Positions 52,941-62,360 of a stretch of DNA of 64,000 bases are shown here, one piece after another. Position 1 is the stretch's first letter, and each line of letters begins with the position of its first letter. The translations under genes were made by a program, and so were the position numbers. A model generated the notes under the pieces. That model was not told where the DNA came from and made no database searches. It worked only from the letters and a program-made list of their open reading frames with translations. Origin of the DNA: Fistulifera solaris (taxonomy: Eukaryota > Bacillariophyta > Bacillariophyceae > Naviculales > Stauroneidaceae); NCBI GenBank assembly GCA_030295235.1, contig AP026129.1, positions 1,302,001 through 1,366,000 on the forward strand. Direction: 5' to 3'.

Positions 52941-54252
52941 ATGAAGTTGCAATTTCTTTTGACTGCTTCGATCGCAGTCGCCATCGCTCGTGGCGAAAAT
53001 GTGCCCTCCTCTTTGCGCAAACGAGAGCTTGTTTGGGGGCAAAGTGATGCCGGAACCTTCTATACCTTGATCGCTGCCACAGACTACTCAGCTATGCAGG
53101 GGAGTCGAGGTGCAACAATCTTCGGAAGGAATCACGAACGTCGGTTTCATCGATACCGGCGATTGGGTTTCTTACCCTGTTAACTTGCCCACAAATGGAC
53201 CTTACCAATTCCATAGTCGAATCTCCTCACCCTCTGGTGAAGGAAGCTTCGAAGTGGTAAACTTTGATACACAGCAGGTGTATGCGACCTTTAGTGGATT
53301 CCCCGCCACAGGTGATTATCAGGCATTTACAACTGTCGATCAGATGTTTGATCTTCCGGCTGGGGCATTCTCATTGCAAGTCAGAGCCACCCAAAGTGGA
53401 TTCAACATGCTTTGGTTTTCTCTCAAAGCGGTTGCTCCAGCTCCTGTAGAAGCACCTATTGAAGTGCCTGTTGAGGCTCCTGTCGAGACTCCTGTAGAAG
53501 CACCCGTCGAACCTCCTGTAGAAGCACCTGTCGAACCCCCCGTTGAGCCACCTGTTGAGCCGCCTGTCGAACCGCCTGTCGAACCACCTGTCGAATTTCC
53601 CGAAACCGTCGTCACACCTGCCCCGACTACCACTCGCACTGCATCGCCGACGGTAAAACAAACTCCTTCGCCAACTTCTACACCGACCATGAAGAAGACC
53701 GCTGCTCCGACTTCCGCACCGACCGTCAAGAAGACCGCGGCTCCGACTTCGGCACCGACCGTCAAGCAGACTGCGGCGCCAACTTCGAGCCCTACTGTGA
53801 TGCAGACTCCCGCTCCTACTTCGACCCCGACTGTGAAACAGACACCAGCTCCATCTGCTGCGCCCCTACCGCCTTACTTCTCGTTGATGGCCGCCTCTGG
53901 GTACGCAGAAATGGAAGGTCTTGCTTTGGAAAACTCCAGCGAAGGTCTCCCCAACCTAGCAAACTATGATGCTGGTGATTGGTCAAGCTACGACATCACT
54001 CTTCCTTACGCTGGAACCTACCAAATGATGTTCCGTGTCAGTAGCCCCTTTGGTGAAGGTGGGTTCGACATTACGAACTGGGATACGCAAGAAATCTACA
54101 GCAACATCGACGTCATGCCCAACACGGGTGACTGGCAGTTCTACCAAACTGTTTCAGTTCTTGTCAACCTTCCAGAAGGAGGCATGCGAATGCAACTGAA
54201 GTGTTACAATCCGGGCTTCAACTTGCTCTGGTTTGTCATCAAGTCGCCTTAA
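52941..54252 (+). CDS. Secreted protein with two CBM6 domains joined by a PVE/PT-rich linker
   Basis: ATG 52941 gives a signal peptide (MKLQFLLTASIAVAIARG). A frame change near 53097-53105 (G-run) leads into the main frame, about 436 residues in total. CBM6-like domain 1: YSAMQG ... VGFIDTGDWVSYPVNLP, GPYQFHSRISSPSGEGSFEVVN, GFNMLWFSLK (about 53070-53440). Then a linker of PVEAPVEPPVE repeats (53445-53600) and of TPTVKQTxAPTS repeats (53640-53865). CBM6-like domain 2: GYAEMEG ... YDAGDWSSYDITLPYAGTYQMMFRVSSPFGEGG ... GFNLLWFVIK (53885-54250). CBM6 modules bind beta-glucans and related polysaccharides. There is no catalytic domain, so a cell-wall or mucilage-linked binding or cross-linking role is inferred. 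It is the first of four related genes. Confidence 0.8.
53445..53865 (+). repeat. Low-complexity linker repeats (PVE and PTVKQTxAPTS)
   Basis: Two back-to-back in-frame repeat tracts: GAACCACCTGTC-type 12-base units, then about 36-base units. They code for the flexible linker between the CBM6 domains. Confidence 0.8.
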
Positions 54253-54925: not shown

Positions 54926-57259
54926 ATGAGGTTCCTTTCTATTCACATCTTAACAGTAGCACTATCTCTTCTTTTGACGGTCGAAGCTGGAAGAGAGCTT
55001 CATCTGGGTGCCGACCATGAAAACGATCATTACTATTCGCTCGTCTCGGCCGTCAATTTCGATAATTCGTCGGGCGTCGAAACGAGAATATCGTCGGAGG
55101 CACTGAAAAGTCTTCGATACATGCATATCGGCGATTTTGCGGCTTATCAAGTCGATTTGGCCGTTGCAGCGCCTTATCTGATGCAATTACGGATTGCCTC
55201 TCCCGTAGGTGAAGGAAGCATAGAGATTGTGAATCTTCAAACACAACAAGTTTTGGCAACGGTAGAAACAATCAATGCAACAGGCGATTGGAGTCAATGG
55301 ATTACAATTGAACGCGAAATCGAGCTTCCTGCGGGTCTGTCGATATTACAGGTTCGAGCAACTCAGCCTGGTTGGGAATTGCTGTGGCTTTCGTTACTGG
55401 AAATGGACCCCTTGATTACGACGGAAGCACCAATACCCTTGATCACACCGGCTCCCATGGCACCCTTGGTTCCTTCTCCCGTAGTCGATCCGGTGCCACT
55501 CATGACCATGACACCGGTAGCAACGGCGTTACCGACATCTTCGATTCCTTCGCTAGCGCCATCGTCGGTTCCGACGGCCATGCCGACGCGACAGCCGGTC
55601 CCACTGCCCGGCCCGGCGACGGGGTTTGTCCGCGCACATGAACGACTCATTGTGGGCCCGGATGGCAATCAACTGCAATTAAAAGGAATGGTTCTGGGTG
55701 GATGGATGGTATTACAACCCTATCTTGTTTTGGCTGAAAATTATACCAACACGTCGAGTGAACTCTTTGATTTGGTCGAAAAGACAGTTGGATCAGATCA
55801 AATGATGGAATTTCGACAATCATGGTTGGATAATTTTGTGACACACGAAGATGTTCGGGAACTCAAAAGTTTGGGATTCAATATAATCAAGGCCCCCTTG
55901 CATTATGAATTGTTTACGTTACCCATTCAAGAGGAGCCTGTTCGTGGACAAGATACTTGGATCATGACAGGATTCGACTTAGTGGATCAGCTCTTGGAGT
56001 GGGCGGCGGAGGAAGAGATCTACGTGTTGCTGGATCTTCAAGCCGCTCCGGGTGGTCAGAACTTCGACAATGCTACGGATTACGACCCCCGGTTTTATTC
56101 TTTTTGGCAAGATGGGGAAAATCAGCGAAAAGCGATTGCTTTGTGGCGGGAAATTGCCATTCGTTACGCCGATAATCCTTGGGTGGCGGGCTACGACCTC
56201 TTGAATTCAGTTGGGTGGAATTTTGACGAAACAGATATTACCAAACATCAAAATGGCTGCGACGAAGAGACAAATGGACCCCTTCGTTTGTTTTATAACG
56301 GAGCGATCAATGCCATTCGCGACTTCGATACAAATCACATGATTGTACTCGCTGGAAATTGTTGGGGTACAAACCACAAGGGTCTATTTCCCATGAATGA
56401 CGACAATGTTGTATTGGGCTTCCGCATGTCTTGGACGTCGTTAAAGGAAGGAGAAAAGGCGCAAAGGGATGTGCCACCAGAAGAGACCATTTTTCAGCAA
56501 CTATTTGAAAGGGAGAAGTACAACGTGCCATTGATAATGACGCACGCAGGCGATTTTCACAACAAGTGGTACTCTGATACAACGTCCATGCTGGAAGCGA
56601 ATGATATTGGCTGGACATGGTTTACGTGGAAAAAGATGAACTCAACGGATAGTCCCTTTGAAATTTACAGCACCACTTCATACAATACTCTGCTTTCGCA
56701 CTGGGATTACAAATGCGATGACATTCATGTAGAAAGCGCTTTTCGCGCGCTCATGCAAATAGCAAACAATACACAGCTCAGCAAAACAAGGCGTAACCGA
56801 CCAGTCATTGAGGCCTTGCTGAATGAAGTTCGAAATTGCGACTCAGCATTGCAATATGAAGTGACAACAGCGGAGCCTAGGCGAATTGAAGGTGAAGACT
56901 TCTGTATGTCCTTGGGCGTGGCTACAGAGCTTGGAGCAGACGTCGACTCGGTTGGATCTAATGTTGGCTGGCTAAACAGTGGATCGACAATATCCTACAA
57001 GATTGGAGTCGCTGTTCCGGGCACCTATAACCTAAAATTTCGAATAGCCAGCCCCTCGGGCGATGGTGGTCTCACCATCCAGTCAAATGGTATACAGATT
57101 GGATCGTCAAGCGGATTCACGCGAACATATGGCTGGCAAAATTGGGCAGACGTCGACACATCAGTGATTTTGCCCGCCGGCGTACAAGTTCTGGACATTA
57201 TTTCAACAGGTCCAGGTTGGAACTTGAATTGGTTGGAGCTATCGTTCGTTTCCGCTTAG
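54926..57259 (+). CDS. Secreted CBM6-GH5-CBM6 protein with altered catalytic residues
   Basis: A complete 777-residue frame, no intron or frameshift. Signal peptide MRFLSIHILTVALSLLLTVEA. CBM6 domain 1 is about residues 36-155 and a Pro/Thr linker about 156-235. A GH5-like (exo-beta-1,3-glucanase type) barrel is about 236-640: LKGMVLGGWM, LGFNIIKAPLHYELF, EIYVLLDLQAAPGGQ, NPWVAGYDLLNSVGWNF, MIVLAGNCWGTNH, VPLIMTHAGDF, GWTWFTWKKMN. A typical CBM6 (EGEDF ... VGWLNSGSTISYKI ... AGVQVLDIISTGPGWNLNWLEL) covers about 655-775. GH5 enzymes use two glutamates, one in an NEP motif and one on strand 7. Here the first is LLNS (Ser428) and the second aligns with THAG (His540). The protein may therefore be a non-hydrolytic glucan binder rather than a glucanase. 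Confidence 0.85.
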   Translation: MRFLSIHILTVALSLLLTVEAGRELHLGADHENDHYYSLVSAVNFDNSSGVETRISSEALKSLRYMHIGDFAAYQVDLAVAAPYLMQLRIASPVGEGSIEIVNLQTQQVLATVETINATGDWSQWITIEREIELPAGLSILQVRATQPGWELLWLSLLEMDPLITTEAPIPLITPAPMAPLVPSPVVDPVPLMTMTPVATALPTSSIPSLAPSSVPTAMPTRQPVPLPGPATGFVRAHERLIVGPDGNQLQLKGMVLGGWMVLQPYLVLAENYTNTSSELFDLVEKTVGSDQMMEFRQSWLDNFVTHEDVRELKSLGFNIIKAPLHYELFTLPIQEEPVRGQDTWIMTGFDLVDQLLEWAAEEEIYVLLDLQAAPGGQNFDNATDYDPRFYSFWQDGENQRKAIALWREIAIRYADNPWVAGYDLLNSVGWNFDETDITKHQNGCDEETNGPLRLFYNGAINAIRDFDTNHMIVLAGNCWGTNHKGLFPMNDDNVVLGFRMSWTSLKEGEKAQRDVPPEETIFQQLFEREKYNVPLIMTHAGDFHNKWYSDTTSMLEANDIGWTWFTWKKMNSTDSPFEIYSTTSYNTLLSHWDYKCDDIHVESAFRALMQIANNTQLSKTRRNRPVIEALLNEVRNCDSALQYEVTTAEPRRIEGEDFCMSLGVATELGADVDSVGSNVGWLNSGSTISYKIGVAVPGTYNLKFRIASPSGDGGLTIQSNGIQIGSSSGFTRTYGWQNWADVDTSVILPAGVQVLDIISTGPGWNLNWLELSFVSA

Positions 57260-57423
57260 TTTTGAATGGTTAAGACTGTTCATTGGCTTGTATCATATTA
57301 GATTCTTCAGAATCACAGCAAGAACGGTCAGTTGACCGTGAAACCGAGTTAATCGTGACAAAAATTAGCGACAGTCAGGTAAAGCGATAGATACTAAACT
57401 TTTCATTAAAAGAGTCAAACAAT

Positions 57424-59774
57424 TTAACACCTTTCCACTGTGTTATTGCCTAGCAATATTTTGACAACCGACGAAATTGGTTTTGCCTTGGATACCAGCG
57501 TGTTGTTGGCGATTTGCATTAAAGCGCGTAAGGCACTTTCTTCATGGATGTTGCTACAATTGTTGCTCCAGTAATCGGCTAGTGTATTGTAGGACGTAGA
57601 ACTACCGAACTGAAAAGGTGTCATTGTTGTATTGAGCCCTTTCCATGTCCACCACAGCCATCCCAACTTACTAGACTCCATCCTCTGAAAGACACTCACC
57701 GATGACTCATTCAGCTCGCCACTGACATGGGTCATAACGACTGGCACGTTGTAGCTTTCTCTGCTTGCAATCAATGATTCTATGGTCTCCATTGCCATTT
57801 CCATTCCGTGTAAATGAAACCCAAGCGCTACATTTGTGTCATTGACCGGTAAAGACCTCGGTGATTCGTACCCCAACAATTTCCTGCTAATATAATCATA
57901 TGATTCAAATCAACTTCCCGGATGGCGGAAATGGTTTGTTCGTACAATGCCCGTAATGGTTTATTGGAGGTTTCGTCACAGCCATTCCAGTGTCGAGTCG
58001 CCCATTCATCTTCTTGAAAATTCCAATCAACCGCGCTGAGCAGGTCGTATCCCGCTAACCACGGATGATCAGCATAGCGCCGGGCCAATTCTTGCCACAA
58101 TGCGACTGTTTTGCGTCTATTTTCCGCATATTCCCACAGCGAAGGGTATTGTACATCAAAATCTGTGATTGGATCTAATCCTTGTCCTCCAGGTGCTGCC
58201 ATTAAATCCAACATTACATAGAGTTCGTGATCCGTAGCCCATTCCATTAGTTGATCCAACAAACGGAATCCAATAGCGGACCAAGTATCATACCCGGTCA
58301 GCGACTCTTCTTGTATCGGCAACGTAAAAAGTTCATAATGCAGGGGCACGCGAATGGCATTGAAACCGGTCACCTTAATTTCTTGCAAATCATCTTTCGT
58401 GACAAATGATTGCAGCCAGACTTGTTGAAAAGAACGACGAGCGTTCATCCCTACCGTTGTTTCGACTCGTTTCCACCATTCACGTGCGGAAATGGAAGAG
58501 GAATTCATCACCAGATTCGGGGCCATCCAGCCACCCAACGCAACACCTCGTAGCAACAGAGGCTGATCTTGTGGATCACGTAAGGTGGTTCCCTGCGCGC
58601 GTACAAAGCCTGTGGCCGTATCCGTAAATGATGTGGGTGTCACTGTTGTGGGTGAGGACGAGGTAGATGTTGCTGTAGGTTCTGTTGTCGGAAGAATGTC
58701 CGCGCTGGGTCTCGGAGTTGAAAGGTTGTTGTTGGGTCTGGATGTGGGAGTCACCGTGGGAATCTCCACCTCCCAATCCCAACACCACCAGCGAAAGTTC
58801 CATCCTCCTTGTTCGACCGTCAATGTCATTGTAGTTAGAGCGGATGGCGTCAAATAGACCCATTCCGAGGATACCTTTTCGTATTGGTACCAACTATTCG
58901 TTGCGGGCAACTGAGAAATCGTGAGAAGAATACGCTTGGATGCATCCTCTTCCACATTCTCCAGTTCGACGCGAAAGGCTCCTTCGCCACTGGGGGTGGA
59001 AACACCAAAATGAAATTGATACCAACCTTGACGAGGTAACACAATATCATACATCACTAGATCCGAAGGATCCAACCAAGCCAAATTGGAAATTTCTTTT
59101 CCTTCAATGGTCATCCCTAGCATGAGACGATAATCTCGAGCCGCTTGATACGTTTGCATGCATTCGCTGGGGGGTGTAGGTGTAGTCGTCGTGTCCGGTA
59201 CAAAAACGACCTTCGAGGGACTTATCGAAGGCGTCATCGATGGTACCGTCGATACCTCCTCTTCCGGCGGCGGTGGTGGTGGTAGTTGGATTGTTCGCAG
59301 ACACAGGGATTGTAAATTGAAGCCACCTTGTAGAATCTGTAATTTCATGGGAATCATAACGGCTGATGATTGATTGCTCAGCGGAGGAATTGTGAATTGC
59401 GACGTAACGGGTTGATAGTTATTCCAGTCGCCCGTGATGGGCATTTCGAACAAATGGGTATAGTATTGCCGTGTTTCGGCATGTACGACCATGACTTTTC
59501 CTTCGCCGGTAGGACTCGCGACCCTCCATTCGATTTCGTTATAAGAAGCAGAAGGAATTTCGTACACGACCCAATCGTGTACATCCAAATATCCCAATGC
59601 ATCGGAAACCGGCAAGACACCTTGCATGGACGTATAATTTGTAGCCGTTAGAAAGAGAGTGCAATCCTGAGCCACGGCGACAGAGAAGCCGAACACGAGC
59701 ACGGAAACAACGACCGTTGTTGTTCGTTTGCGTTTTCGGCTGCACTTGTCTTGATGCCACCAAAAGAAGTTCAT
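57424..59774 (-). CDS. Secreted CBM6-CBM6-GH5 protein with altered catalytic residues
   Basis: A paralog facing the previous gene tail to tail, with 164 bases between the stops. The start is ATG 59774: MNFFWWHQDKCSRKRKRTTTVVVSVLVFGFSVAVAQ, a basic N-terminus plus hydrophobic signal. CBM6-like domain 1 (LTATNYTSMQG ... YLDVHDWVVYEIP ... GGFNLQSLCL), a PPPPPEEE/Thr linker, CBM6-like domain 2 (YRLMLGMTIEG ... GGWNFRWWCWDWEV), a Ser/Thr linker, then a GH5-like barrel: LLRGVALGGWM, VTGFNAIRVPLHYELF, ELYVMLDLMAAPGGQ, PWLAGYDLLSAVDWNF, MIILAGNCWGTNH. One frame change near 57840-57860 joins the last part (NDTNVALGFHLHG, VPVVMTHVSGEL, GWLWWTWKGLN). As in the paralog, the NEP glutamate is replaced (Ala at 58032-58034) and the strand-7 motif is THVS. 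About 783 residues. There is no C-terminal CBM6. Confidence 0.83.
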
Positions 59775-60263: not shown

Positions 60264-61139
60264 TTATTTCTGATACGTGCTGGATCGAGCCATGCCGATG
60301 ATCGGATCGTAATCGTAGACGGCGGCTCCTCCGGATTTGGGGAAACGTAAGACCAAGGTTTGTTTCCCACCGATAGTTTCCACTTTAGGATATCCTGTGG
60401 GCATTTTCACAATACGACCATCTACGCTGATATTTTGTGCCAACAAGAGAGGAATGCCGGCACCGAGATCTCCGTTCTTAATTTTCTTGTTGCGGCCTTG
60501 AATTTCAATGCCGACATCAATGAAATCACCGGTACCGTCTTGGCACGGACTGCACCATTTCCAATGCAAGAGTTGGACGGAGAATTTGAAATCACCCGGC
60601 AAGACTTTCAGCAGTTCTCCGGTATTGGAAACAACTTCACCACCTTCCATCATAATGTAAGCGTCAATTTGAATGGAGCCGACATTCGAGACGTCCGACG
60701 TGAAGGAGAATGACTTGGCATCAAGACCGTACAAATCGGTGTTAAACAAAGAAGTGAAAGCGAATTTCCGACTAGCAAACGACTCGATGGTGTGTTTGAT
60801 TTTTCCGGCCTTGCCCACAACCTTAGCAGTCTTGCCGCTCACTTCACGAAGGAAACTCATTCTCATCGTGACCGCATTGGGATCGGAGATTCCCGGATAG
60901 CGATTATCGTAAAGGGTGATCTTTCCGCTGTTGCCGTGGGTAAAGGCGGACGTGTGAATAATGGGTTCAGGTTGTTCCGAGGGTGCTTCGCTCGGGCTCG
61001 CTGTAGGAGTGGGAGTGGGAGGACGAAGTGACGGTGTACCGCTGGGTACTTCGGACGAGATATCTTCAGCCTTTATTTGGCTTATTGTCCATGCGAACAG
61101 CATGAAAGCTTTCACGAGTACTGTCATTGACTTTGGCAT
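60264..61139 (-). CDS. Secreted protein resembling coral skeletal acidic matrix proteins (SAARP-like)
   Basis: ATG 61139 (MPKSMTVLVKAFMLFAWTISQIKA) gives a signal peptide and a 291-residue protein. A Pro/Thr/Ser/Glu linker (PSLRPPTPTPTASPSEAPSE) is followed by one globular domain: GKITLYDNRYPGISDPNAVTMRMSFL, HTIESFASRKFAFTS, SIQIDAYIMMEGGEVVSNTGELLKVLPGDFKFSVQL, WCSPC, GDFIDVGIEIQGRNKK and MPTGYPKVETIGGKQTLVLRFPKSGGAAVYDYDP. From memory, this block order resembles the domain of skeletal aspartic acid-rich proteins of stony corals, which also has distant homologs in algae; no search could be run. No transmembrane anchor. It sits inside the CBM6 cluster, consistent with an extracellular-matrix role. 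Confidence 0.65.
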   Translation of the reverse strand: MPKSMTVLVKAFMLFAWTISQIKAEDISSEVPSGTPSLRPPTPTPTASPSEAPSEQPEPIIHTSAFTHGNSGKITLYDNRYPGISDPNAVTMRMSFLREVSGKTAKVVGKAGKIKHTIESFASRKFAFTSLFNTDLYGLDAKSFSFTSDVSNVGSIQIDAYIMMEGGEVVSNTGELLKVLPGDFKFSVQLLHWKWCSPCQDGTGDFIDVGIEIQGRNKKIKNGDLGAGIPLLLAQNISVDGRIVKMPTGYPKVETIGGKQTLVLRFPKSGGAAVYDYDPIIGMARSSTYQK

Positions 61140-62360
61140 AGTTAAAAGAGGGCCGCAATTTGTTTCGTTTTCGAGGTGCTCGATGGAGCTCGATTGATTT
61201 TTTTTAGAACAAGTGAAAGGAAAAATAAAAATAGATCGTTCAGTTCGTGAAATAGTGATCGTGGGGCAAATCTTTTGCGGAAGAAAGGTACGGTACCGGT
61301 AATCCTCCGGCAAAGAATGTTCACTGAGACCCGGTTGGAGTTGGAGTTAAAGGTTTCAAATAATGGGTGTACAAGTACAGGCATACATTAAATCGTAAGT
61401 CGGCGCAAACGACAACGGGCTAGCGCTAACGGCTAGCGGGTGATTGACTGGTTGACTGCAAGGTACTAATTAGTTGTTGGTAATTTTCACAAGGTTACAA
61501 ATCATAGAGCACAAGAACACATGAACGCAGAGTCATGTGTCCTGTGTCCTGTGTCTTGTGCATGCACCAGTAGCAATCAAGACTAGGGTCACATGTCTTC
61601 TTGCTCTTGTCCGCATTTCTACGAACACTACTAGGAATTTAACGGATGCTTTCTTAATAAATCTAAGCAAATGACTGATGTCCCAAAATCCAAGTTGTAT
61701 GCACTGTGGAGCTGAGGAGTGGGTGATACTATTGACGTAAACTTCGGGAGTTGGCTTTTGGATCTTATCTCGAATAGGTCTTTCACGCTATTCCTAGCTG
61801 GGGAGTTTTTTTGTCGCAAATTTCTCTCTTTTACGTATGGATTTAAGGATAAGGACACAAATTTGATCTCATTCCCAAGTGGCATGTCAAAGTCTTACAC
61901 TCACGAGATGCAGATCATCGAAATGAGGACAACAACATCAGTGGCGGTGAAAACGGCATTCCATGGCAATAGAGGACCACGAATAGATAGGTAACTAGTA
62001 GAGAAGCCTAGTCAGGTCTCTTCTATAAAATGGCACACACAGATTCAATTCTTTCATTCAAAATTGAACTGGGAAATGGAGAATCCGAACGATTTATTTT
62101 GTTGCATGCCCTTGAGCTGAAATATTCTCCTTTTTTATAATACAATGTGTCTGCAGTATATATTTGATGGAACAAGCGATAAATCCCGAGAAAGCTTCCG
62201 ACTGACGAAGGATTCATGACTACCCAGCCCGGAGCCCGCGCACGGTGCTTGCTTGTACGTCAGAAGAAAACCTAATGGATGTCTGCCATAAGCGGGCCAT
62301 CAATCCACGTGCAGCTTCGTTCCTCTGTTGTTGGAATTGTTTCATTTATCTGTCAACATT
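61140..62360. other. Intergenic region
   Basis: About 1.2 kb. It contains GGTACGGTACCGGTA (61288-61302), an imperfect inverted repeat GCTAGCGCTAACGGCTAGC (61419-61437) and a tandem of CCTGTGT units (about 61540-61556). The plus-strand frame 61719-61994 has no family features. It probably contains the leader of the SAARP-like gene and the 3' flank of the next CBM6 gene. Confidence 0.45.

What the first reader, a model, noticed from the sequence alone, without database searches (positions are those of the whole stretch)
54926..59774. Two GH5-like CBM6 proteins that both lack the expected catalytic glutamates
In GH5 the acid/base Glu lies in an NEP motif after strand 4. The plus-strand protein has GYDLLNSVGW and the minus-strand paralog GYDLLSAVDW at this site. 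The nucleophile site, normally GEFG-like, reads MTHAGDF and MTHVSGEL. Substrate-side motifs (LGGWM, PLHYELF, APGGQ, NCWGTNH, TWFTWK) are kept in both. The same loss in two diverged paralogs suggests selection for a non-hydrolytic glucan-binding role, a pseudo-glycosidase family built with CBM6 modules.
Basis: partly seen in the sequence, partly recalled or inferred. Interest (0 to 1): 0.8.

Follow-up and report, generated by a model that had tools for sequence, protein, structure and literature searches.

The report
Diatom enzyme relatives without catalytic residues
A diatom keeps a small branch of sugar-cutting-enzyme relatives that have lost both residues needed for cutting, and at least one of them is preserved by evolution as carefully as the working enzymes, which suggests a job in holding sugars or organising the cell surface rather than cutting.

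Summary
The window lies in the allodiploid diatom Fistulifera solaris. Both GH5-like barrels lack the acid/base and nucleophile glutamates: plus gene E>S and E>H, minus gene E>A and E>H. Of 19 strong GH5-like loci in this genome, 11 keep both glutamates, 7 lack both and 1 is unreadable; 80 of 80 bacterial relatives examined keep both. The pseudo rows form one clade (100/99, motif columns left out), so the loss was most likely inherited once and is not a parallel loss in two paralogs. The nearest relatives are of the GH5_46 type (CBM6-bearing enzymes of bacterial laminarin loci), not fungal exo-beta-1,3-glucanases. The plus barrel is under stronger purifying selection than four active paralog pairs (dN/dS 0.045 against 0.11-0.20). 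The minus barrel is looser (0.24), and its window copy has a one-base break that is probably an assembly error. Models of the plus barrel and of the C9 copy of the minus barrel are barrels with the substituted residues after strand 4 and in strand 7. Best explanation: exported CBM6/pseudo-GH5 glucan-binding proteins; binding and export are inferred. Non-catalytic GH5 modules are a known kind; this clade did not appear in the search rows I saw.

The parts
54926..57259 (+). Secreted-looking CBM6 - linker - pseudo-GH5 - CBM6 protein (777 aa)
   Evidence: ORF; Pfam GH5 and two CBM6; N-terminal hydrophobic segment, best other 17-residue mean 1.51
55619..56848 (+). Pseudo-GH5 barrel of the plus gene
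   Evidence: AlphaFold2 best model pLDDT 80, pTM 0.86; Foldseek to GH5 structures
56039..56041 (+). Gln in place of the beta-3 His
56207..56209 (+). Ser in place of the acid/base Glu
56423..56425 (+). Arg in place of the beta-6 His
56543..56545 (+). His in place of the nucleophile Glu
57424..59774 (-). Minus paralog: signal-like N-terminus, two CBM6, pseudo-GH5; split by a one-base frame break near 57850
58200..58202 (-). Met in place of the beta-3 His
58032..58034 (-). Ala in place of the acid/base Glu
57727..57729 (-). His in place of the nucleophile Glu

Best explanation
The two genes are members of a non-catalytic branch of the diatom's GH5_46-like family. A single ancestor lost the acid/base Glu, the nucleophile Glu and the beta-3 His, then duplicated into at least four lineages. 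The proteins are most likely exported and bind beta-glucan or a related cell-surface or storage polysaccharide through CBM6 modules and the retained, non-cutting barrel cleft, so they work as lectin-like or scaffold proteins. Shown here: loss of the residues, one clade, purifying selection on the plus barrel, barrel fold predicted. Inferred: that activity is lost, export, ligand binding, and the identity of the ligand.
For: Both Glu lost in 7 of 19 strong GH5-like loci of the genome, kept in 11, unreadable in 1. 88 of 88 active-type rows keep both. In the GH5_46 enzyme CbGH5 either Glu to Ala abolished activity (PMC5812240, passages and section 12), and 13 of the 27 bacterial rows listed with its spacing of 97 have the two Glu at exactly 215 and 312 from a candidate Met. 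Pseudo rows are one clade, 100/99, with motif columns dropped. Of 92 columns conserved in the active-type rows, 46 are kept in all four pseudo rows and 9 lost in all four (a gap counts as lost in two of the nine); losses are denser in the six strand-end motifs in each pseudo row (p 0.0013-0.015) and not in the 5 of 8 active diatom rows tried. The plus barrel has dN/dS 0.045 between homoeologs, against 0.106-0.198 for four active pairs (Fisher p 1e-4). The plus barrel and the C9 copy of the minus barrel are predicted as GH5-like barrels. N-terminal hydrophobic segments are present. Precedent: Rsi24C-GH5, a GH5 module without acid/base, binds cellulose (PMC3526467 section 31).
Against: No binding, expression or localisation data. 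The minus barrel evolves faster than the active pool (0.238, p 0.04) and C13 does not differ (0.112, p 0.22). Five of the 7 pseudo copies have a frame break somewhere in this assembly. CBM6 modules alone could do the binding, leaving the barrel a spacer. Export is judged from hydropathy only. No other diatom could be searched here, so the age and spread of the clade are unknown.
Confidence: 0.55

Rival explanations
1. The barrel no longer binds sugar and is kept as a rigid structural spacer; only the CBM6 modules bind.
For: The catalytic centre is heavily changed, and CBM6 modules are present beside the barrel. A CBM6-only protein lies next door.
Against: 46 of 92 conserved columns are kept in all four pseudo rows, including GGWM and APGGQ residues. 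The plus barrel is more constrained than its own N-terminal CBM6 and linker part (0.045 against 0.175).
Confidence: 0.17
2. The pseudo-members regulate the active paralogs or compete with them for substrate, as inactive GH28 proteins are reported to act in the pathway of active ones in beetles.
For: Active and inactive paralogs share architecture and coexist in one genome. Precedent PMC6549527 (abstract seen).
Against: No expression data; nothing here shows the two kinds act together.
Confidence: 0.13
3. Decaying genes: loss of function followed by drift.
For: Frame breaks in 5 of 7 pseudo copies (window minus and C14 in the barrel, C9 plus in the barrel, C9 minus in the linker, C5 at two places; only window plus and C13 are whole) and faster evolution of the minus barrel.
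Against: dN/dS is well below 1 in all three pairs tested, and stays so behind the three barrel breaks tested (0.049, 0.193, 0.102). Similar one-base breaks occur in active genes, and two contigs (C28, C47) differ by 11 gap openings and 0 mismatches over 3976 aligned bases, so assembly error is the likelier cause of most of them. C5 has no partner to test.
Confidence: 0.07
4. The barrel has a different catalytic centre and performs another reaction.
For: Polar and charged replacements in the plus barrel (K, Q, R, H, D at strand ends), in a barrel very strongly conserved between homoeologs.
Against: The replacements differ among the four pseudo lineages (H/H/K/Q at the nucleophile, Q/M/Q/Q at beta-3, R/H/Q/H at beta-6), so no shared new centre is visible.
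Confidence: 0.07

Closest known systems
GH5_46 enzymes such as CbGH5 of Chryseobacterium (PMC5812240, passages and section 12) and the CBM6-bearing GH5_46 of presumed marine laminarin loci (PMC6794258, passages)
   Same: Barrel sequence of the bacterial relatives (44-53% identity to the active diatom query), CBM6 partner in the 4 relatives scanned, GH30 beside three of them and GH16 beside one, glutamates at 215 and 312 in 13 of the 27 rows listed.
   Different: The pseudo-members have lost both glutamates and the beta-3 His. The diatom proteins also carry N-terminal CBM6.
Rsi24C-GH5 of Clostridium thermocellum (PMC3526467 section 31)
   Same: A GH5 module lacking the acid/base that binds polysaccharide instead of cutting.
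   Different: It is the outside sensor joined to an intracellular anti-sigma factor and a distant GH5 member; here the protein looks soluble and carries CBM6.
Other non-catalytic GH5 groups: GH5_30, a Xanthomonas GH5_1 subgroup, a GH5_8-like subgroup (PMC3526467 section 31)
   Same: Recurrent loss of the catalytic machinery in GH5.
   Different: Other subfamilies and other partner modules; the authors describe long branches for two of them, whereas the plus barrel here is slow between homoeologs.
Fungal exo-beta-1,3-glucanases (1cz1 and relatives)
   Same: GH5 fold, matched by sequence and structure.
   Different: Weaker matches than to the GH5_22 chain 9ku5 (E 1e-14 against 8e-32) and far weaker than to the bacterial relatives; not the closest family of these proteins.

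Membership tests
GH5 fold (clan GH-A barrel) | Sequence and predicted structure match GH5 | tested here: met
   Pfam Cellulase above cut-off; AlphaFold2 and Foldseek for the plus barrel and the C9 copy of the minus barrel (TM-scores of the best hits 0.5-0.8 by query length)
Catalytic GH5 | Acid/base Glu after strand 4 | tested here: not met
   S, A, A, A in the four pseudo rows; E in 88 of 88 active-type rows
Catalytic GH5 | Nucleophile Glu at strand 7 | tested here: not met
   H, H, K, Q in the four pseudo rows; E in 88 of 88
Catalytic GH5 | Other active-site residues (Arg, His, Asn, His, Tyr) | tested here: not met
   beta-3 His lost in 4 of 4; Asn in 3 of 4; Arg, beta-6 His and Tyr in 2 of 4 each (the minus row is the C9 copy, and the window copy reads His at the Tyr)
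GH5_46 | Placed in the subfamily by the CAZy/dbCAN model | not tested
   dbCAN is not on hand; assignment is indirect, from residue numbers 215/312, CBM6 and GH30/GH16 neighbours of the bacterial relatives. GH5_32 and GH5_33, listed with stramenopile members in PMC3526467, are not excluded.
Non-catalytic GH5 modules | Catalytic machinery missing in an otherwise intact GH5 module | tested here: met
Non-catalytic GH5 modules that bind polysaccharide (Rsi24C-like) | Measured glycan binding | not testable with these tools
   needs purified protein

The most novel reading that the evidence does not exclude
After losing the GH5 apparatus, the plus-gene barrel gained a different active centre or a highly specific ligand site built from the substituted strand-end residues (K91, Q141, S197, R269, H309, D312 of the domain). 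It is more tightly conserved than its enzymatic cousins because it performs a new essential extracellular reaction or recognition in diatoms.
Probability: 0.08. Interest if true: 0.8.

Novelty: new variant of a known kind. Interest (0 to 1): 0.45.

Why it matters
Catalytically dead GH5 modules are recorded, but PMC3526467 (section 31) names only one that had been functionally characterised by then. Here an allodiploid gives a built-in comparison: a pseudoenzyme barrel more conserved than its active paralogs within the same genome. In F. solaris, where knock-out of both homoeologs of a gene is published (PMC13276009, passages seen), the role of such a protein in the cell surface or in beta-glucan handling is directly testable. 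It also warns against counting GH5 genes in diatoms as glucanases without checking the catalytic residues.

Tried and rejected
Viral contigs: one scan with the family alignment found no relative (58 pattern hits, none confirmed). PDB by sequence: best match 9ku5, a GH5_22 beta-xylosidase that reads NAP where NEP is expected; I could not tell from the calls whether that chain is an engineered mutant, so I drew nothing from it. Convergent loss in two paralogs was considered and rejected because of the clade. An intron as the cause of the minus-gene break was considered and rejected: the homoeolog is open at that spot and differs by one base in the alignment. Papers: the rows listed by searches (8 to 20 rows each, 4, of up to 585 papers) showed no report of this diatom clade by title or abstract; the library holds open papers only. 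PMC7965971 (passages) treats stramenopile GH5_33. VIA-align was not on the machine.

Counts and rows left out: the genome search scored 40 candidates and its counts are lower bounds. Four weak, partial matches (C17:658844, C18:560842, C10:1135415, C9:1146379) were not examined and are not among the 19. Of the 7 pseudo loci the tree and column counts use 4; C9 plus, window minus and C14, near-duplicates with a break in the barrel, were left out. Of the 11 active-motif loci 8 are used, C13:980685, C20 and C27 in part; C28, C19 and C47 were left out as frame-broken. The active C27 row reads T and T at the beta-6 His and Tyr, probably a frame slip. Those 80 were ranked by likeness to an active paralog, which favours active-type rows. 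The dN/dS pool uses four active pairs; C29/C47 (0.180) was left out because C47 repeats C28. The three Fisher tests are uncorrected and use rounded counts. Four of the 80 bacterial loci were scanned for neighbours; a fifth, L037, was only listed for ORFs.
Full report
What the window is. The window is part of contig C10 of a 51.7 Mb genome. Two 23-base target sequences published for Fistulifera solaris (PMC13276009, passages seen) each match exactly twice, on C38 and C39 and on C7 and C8. So the organism is the allodiploid diatom F. solaris or something very close to it. It is described as having 42 homoeologous chromosome pairs (PMC5935921, passages), and C9 carries the homoeologs of both genes in question.

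The observation. The plus gene is one open frame (54926-57259, 777 aa) and carries CBM6, linker, GH5 and CBM6. The minus gene (from the Met at 59774 down to about 57424) carries two CBM6 and GH5, and in this assembly is cut by a one-base break near 57850. A tblastn look at the related loci in the genome gives 19 with a strong match to the GH5-like domain; four further weak, partial matches were not examined. Eleven of the 19 read NEP and GES/GEA at the catalytic sites. Seven lack both glutamates: the plus gene and its C9 homoeolog, the minus gene and its C9 homoeolog, the C13/C14 pair (C14 at the nucleophile read) and a C5 copy. One decayed copy (C29:296207) cannot be read at the acid/base site. 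The substitutions are S/H in the plus gene, A/H in the minus gene, A/K in C13 and A/Q in C5. The window copy of the minus gene agrees with its C9 homoeolog at both sites.

Which family. All 80 keep the Arg, His, Asn, Glu, His, Tyr and Glu of the active centre. Four relatives scanned are GH5 plus CBM6. Three of them (L046, L053, L082) have GH30 beside them, and L082 has GH16 too. This is the combination that PMC6794258 (passages) describes for CBM6-bearing GH5_46 in presumed laminarin loci; the authors say that this type has not been verified by experiment. In CbGH5, a GH5_46 enzyme, Glu215 and Glu312 are the catalytic pair, and either changed to Ala led to loss of activity (PMC5812240, passages and section 12). 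Of the 27 bacterial rows listed with spacing 97, 13 put the two glutamates at exactly 215 and 312 from a candidate start Met (78 of 80 rows had both motifs in the form searched). I therefore call the family GH5_46-type; the subfamily model itself was not run.

One loss, not two. A maximum-likelihood tree of 12 diatom and 28 bacterial barrels, with the six catalytic motif stretches taken out, puts the four pseudo rows in one clade (100/99). The clade lies among the active diatom rows, but the branches that place it there are weaker (86/75, 85/90, 86/87). Shared changes such as Ser to Gly at column 267, and Val after the lost Glu, fit a single ancestor. The likeness of the two window paralogs is therefore best read as inherited.

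Where the changes lie. Of 92 columns conserved at 95% or more in 88 active-type rows, the four pseudo rows keep 63-68 each. They share 46 kept columns and 9 lost ones (in two of the nine one row has a gap), and the lost ones include the beta-3 His, both Glu and some of their neighbours. In each pseudo row losses are denser in the strand-end motifs than elsewhere (p 0.0013-0.015), while the five active diatom rows tried, of 8, show no such pattern. The motif set was chosen because it holds the catalytic residues, so part of this enrichment is by construction.

Selection. Between homoeologs the GH5 part of the plus gene has dS 0.335 and dN 0.015, ratio 0.045. Four active pairs give 0.106-0.198; the pseudo pairs C13/C14 and minus give 0.112 and 0.238. 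Against the pooled active pairs the plus barrel is more constrained (Fisher p 1e-4), the minus barrel less (p 0.04) and C13 no different (p 0.22). So the plus protein is clearly maintained. For the minus protein the case is weaker, though 0.24 is still far below 1.

Frame breaks. Five of the 7 pseudo copies are broken somewhere: window minus, C9 plus and C14 by one base in the barrel, C9 minus in the linker before the barrel, C5 at two places; window plus and C13 are whole. Breaks of this sort occur in active genes too, many of them in or next to short base runs. Contigs C28 and C47 carry the same active gene with 0 mismatches and 11 gap openings over 3976 aligned bases. Behind the three barrel breaks tested the ratio of dN to dS stays low (0.049, 0.193, 0.102). 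I take most of the breaks, that of the window minus gene included, to be assembly errors, but only transcripts can tell.

Structure. The plus barrel is predicted with pLDDT 80 and pTM 0.86 in the best of five models (the others 56-72; twelve rows). The C9 copy of the minus barrel gets pLDDT 90 and pTM 0.91 (thirty rows; five models 89-90). The window copy of the minus barrel was not modelled. Strand 4 ends at 193 and 198, with the Ser or Ala at 197 and 202. Strand 7 spans 305-310 and 300-306, with the His at 309 and 304. Foldseek ranks GH5 structures first for both (9ku5, GH5_22; CelC within the next few), at TM-scores of about 0.5-0.8 and rmsd of 5-11 angstrom. D312 of the plus barrel replaces a second Glu that is invariant in the 88 active-type rows, three residues beyond the nucleophile. 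CbGH5 with its nucleophile removed was inactive (PMC5812240); if it has that second Glu, as all 80 bacterial rows here do (its own sequence was not seen), a carboxylate at that place does not rescue activity.

How it likely works. The N-termini of both proteins are signal-like by hydropathy and no other comparably hydrophobic segment is seen (for the minus gene only up to its break). With CBM6 modules, a kept barrel and a dead centre, the simplest reading is an exported polysaccharide-binding protein. The active relatives and their bacterial gene neighbours point to beta-glucan of the laminarin kind, but CbGH5 was measured on CMC and xylan, so the ligand is open. The precedent for a dead GH5 that binds is Rsi24C-GH5 (PMC3526467 section 31).

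Novelty. Non-catalytic GH5 groups have been described (PMC3526467). A clade in a GH5_46-type family, in a diatom, with CBM6 on both sides of the plus barrel and stronger constraint on it than on active paralogs, did not turn up in the listed rows of the searches named in Tried and rejected. I rate it a new variant of a known kind.

Noticed in passing
window 52941-54252 (+): A CBM6-only, secreted-looking protein (two CBM6 joined by a Pro/Thr-rich linker) upstream of the plus gene; read by eye, its frame is broken by one base near 53105 in a G run, a further such break in the same few kilobases.
   Followed up: partly
G000 contigs C28 and C47 (loci L019/L028 and L023/L030/L031): The two contigs carry the same GH5 gene with 0 mismatches and 11 gap openings over 3976 aligned bases, which points to a redundant contig with indel errors.
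   Followed up: yes
L036 and the diatom active paralogs: Five diatom active barrels compared are 50-56% identical to a Bacteroidota MAG sequence, and the diatom and bacterial rows part at a 98/91 branch; a lateral transfer between bacteria and diatoms is possible. L036 carries a bacterial secretion tail.
   Followed up: partly
G000:C13:142300-149000 (L033): The C13 pseudo-member is over 1000 aa with three CBM6 matches and long Lys/Pro/Thr-rich linkers, a possible wall or mucilage protein.
   Followed up: no
window 60264-61313 (-): A 349 aa open frame with a Pro/Thr/Ser-rich stretch and no Pfam match at E 0.01, beside the minus gene.
   Followed up: no
G000:C29:296207-297211 (L021): A GH5 copy with three in-frame TGA codons that keeps the nucleophile motif but has no readable acid/base site: a decayed or badly assembled active-type gene.
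   Followed up: no
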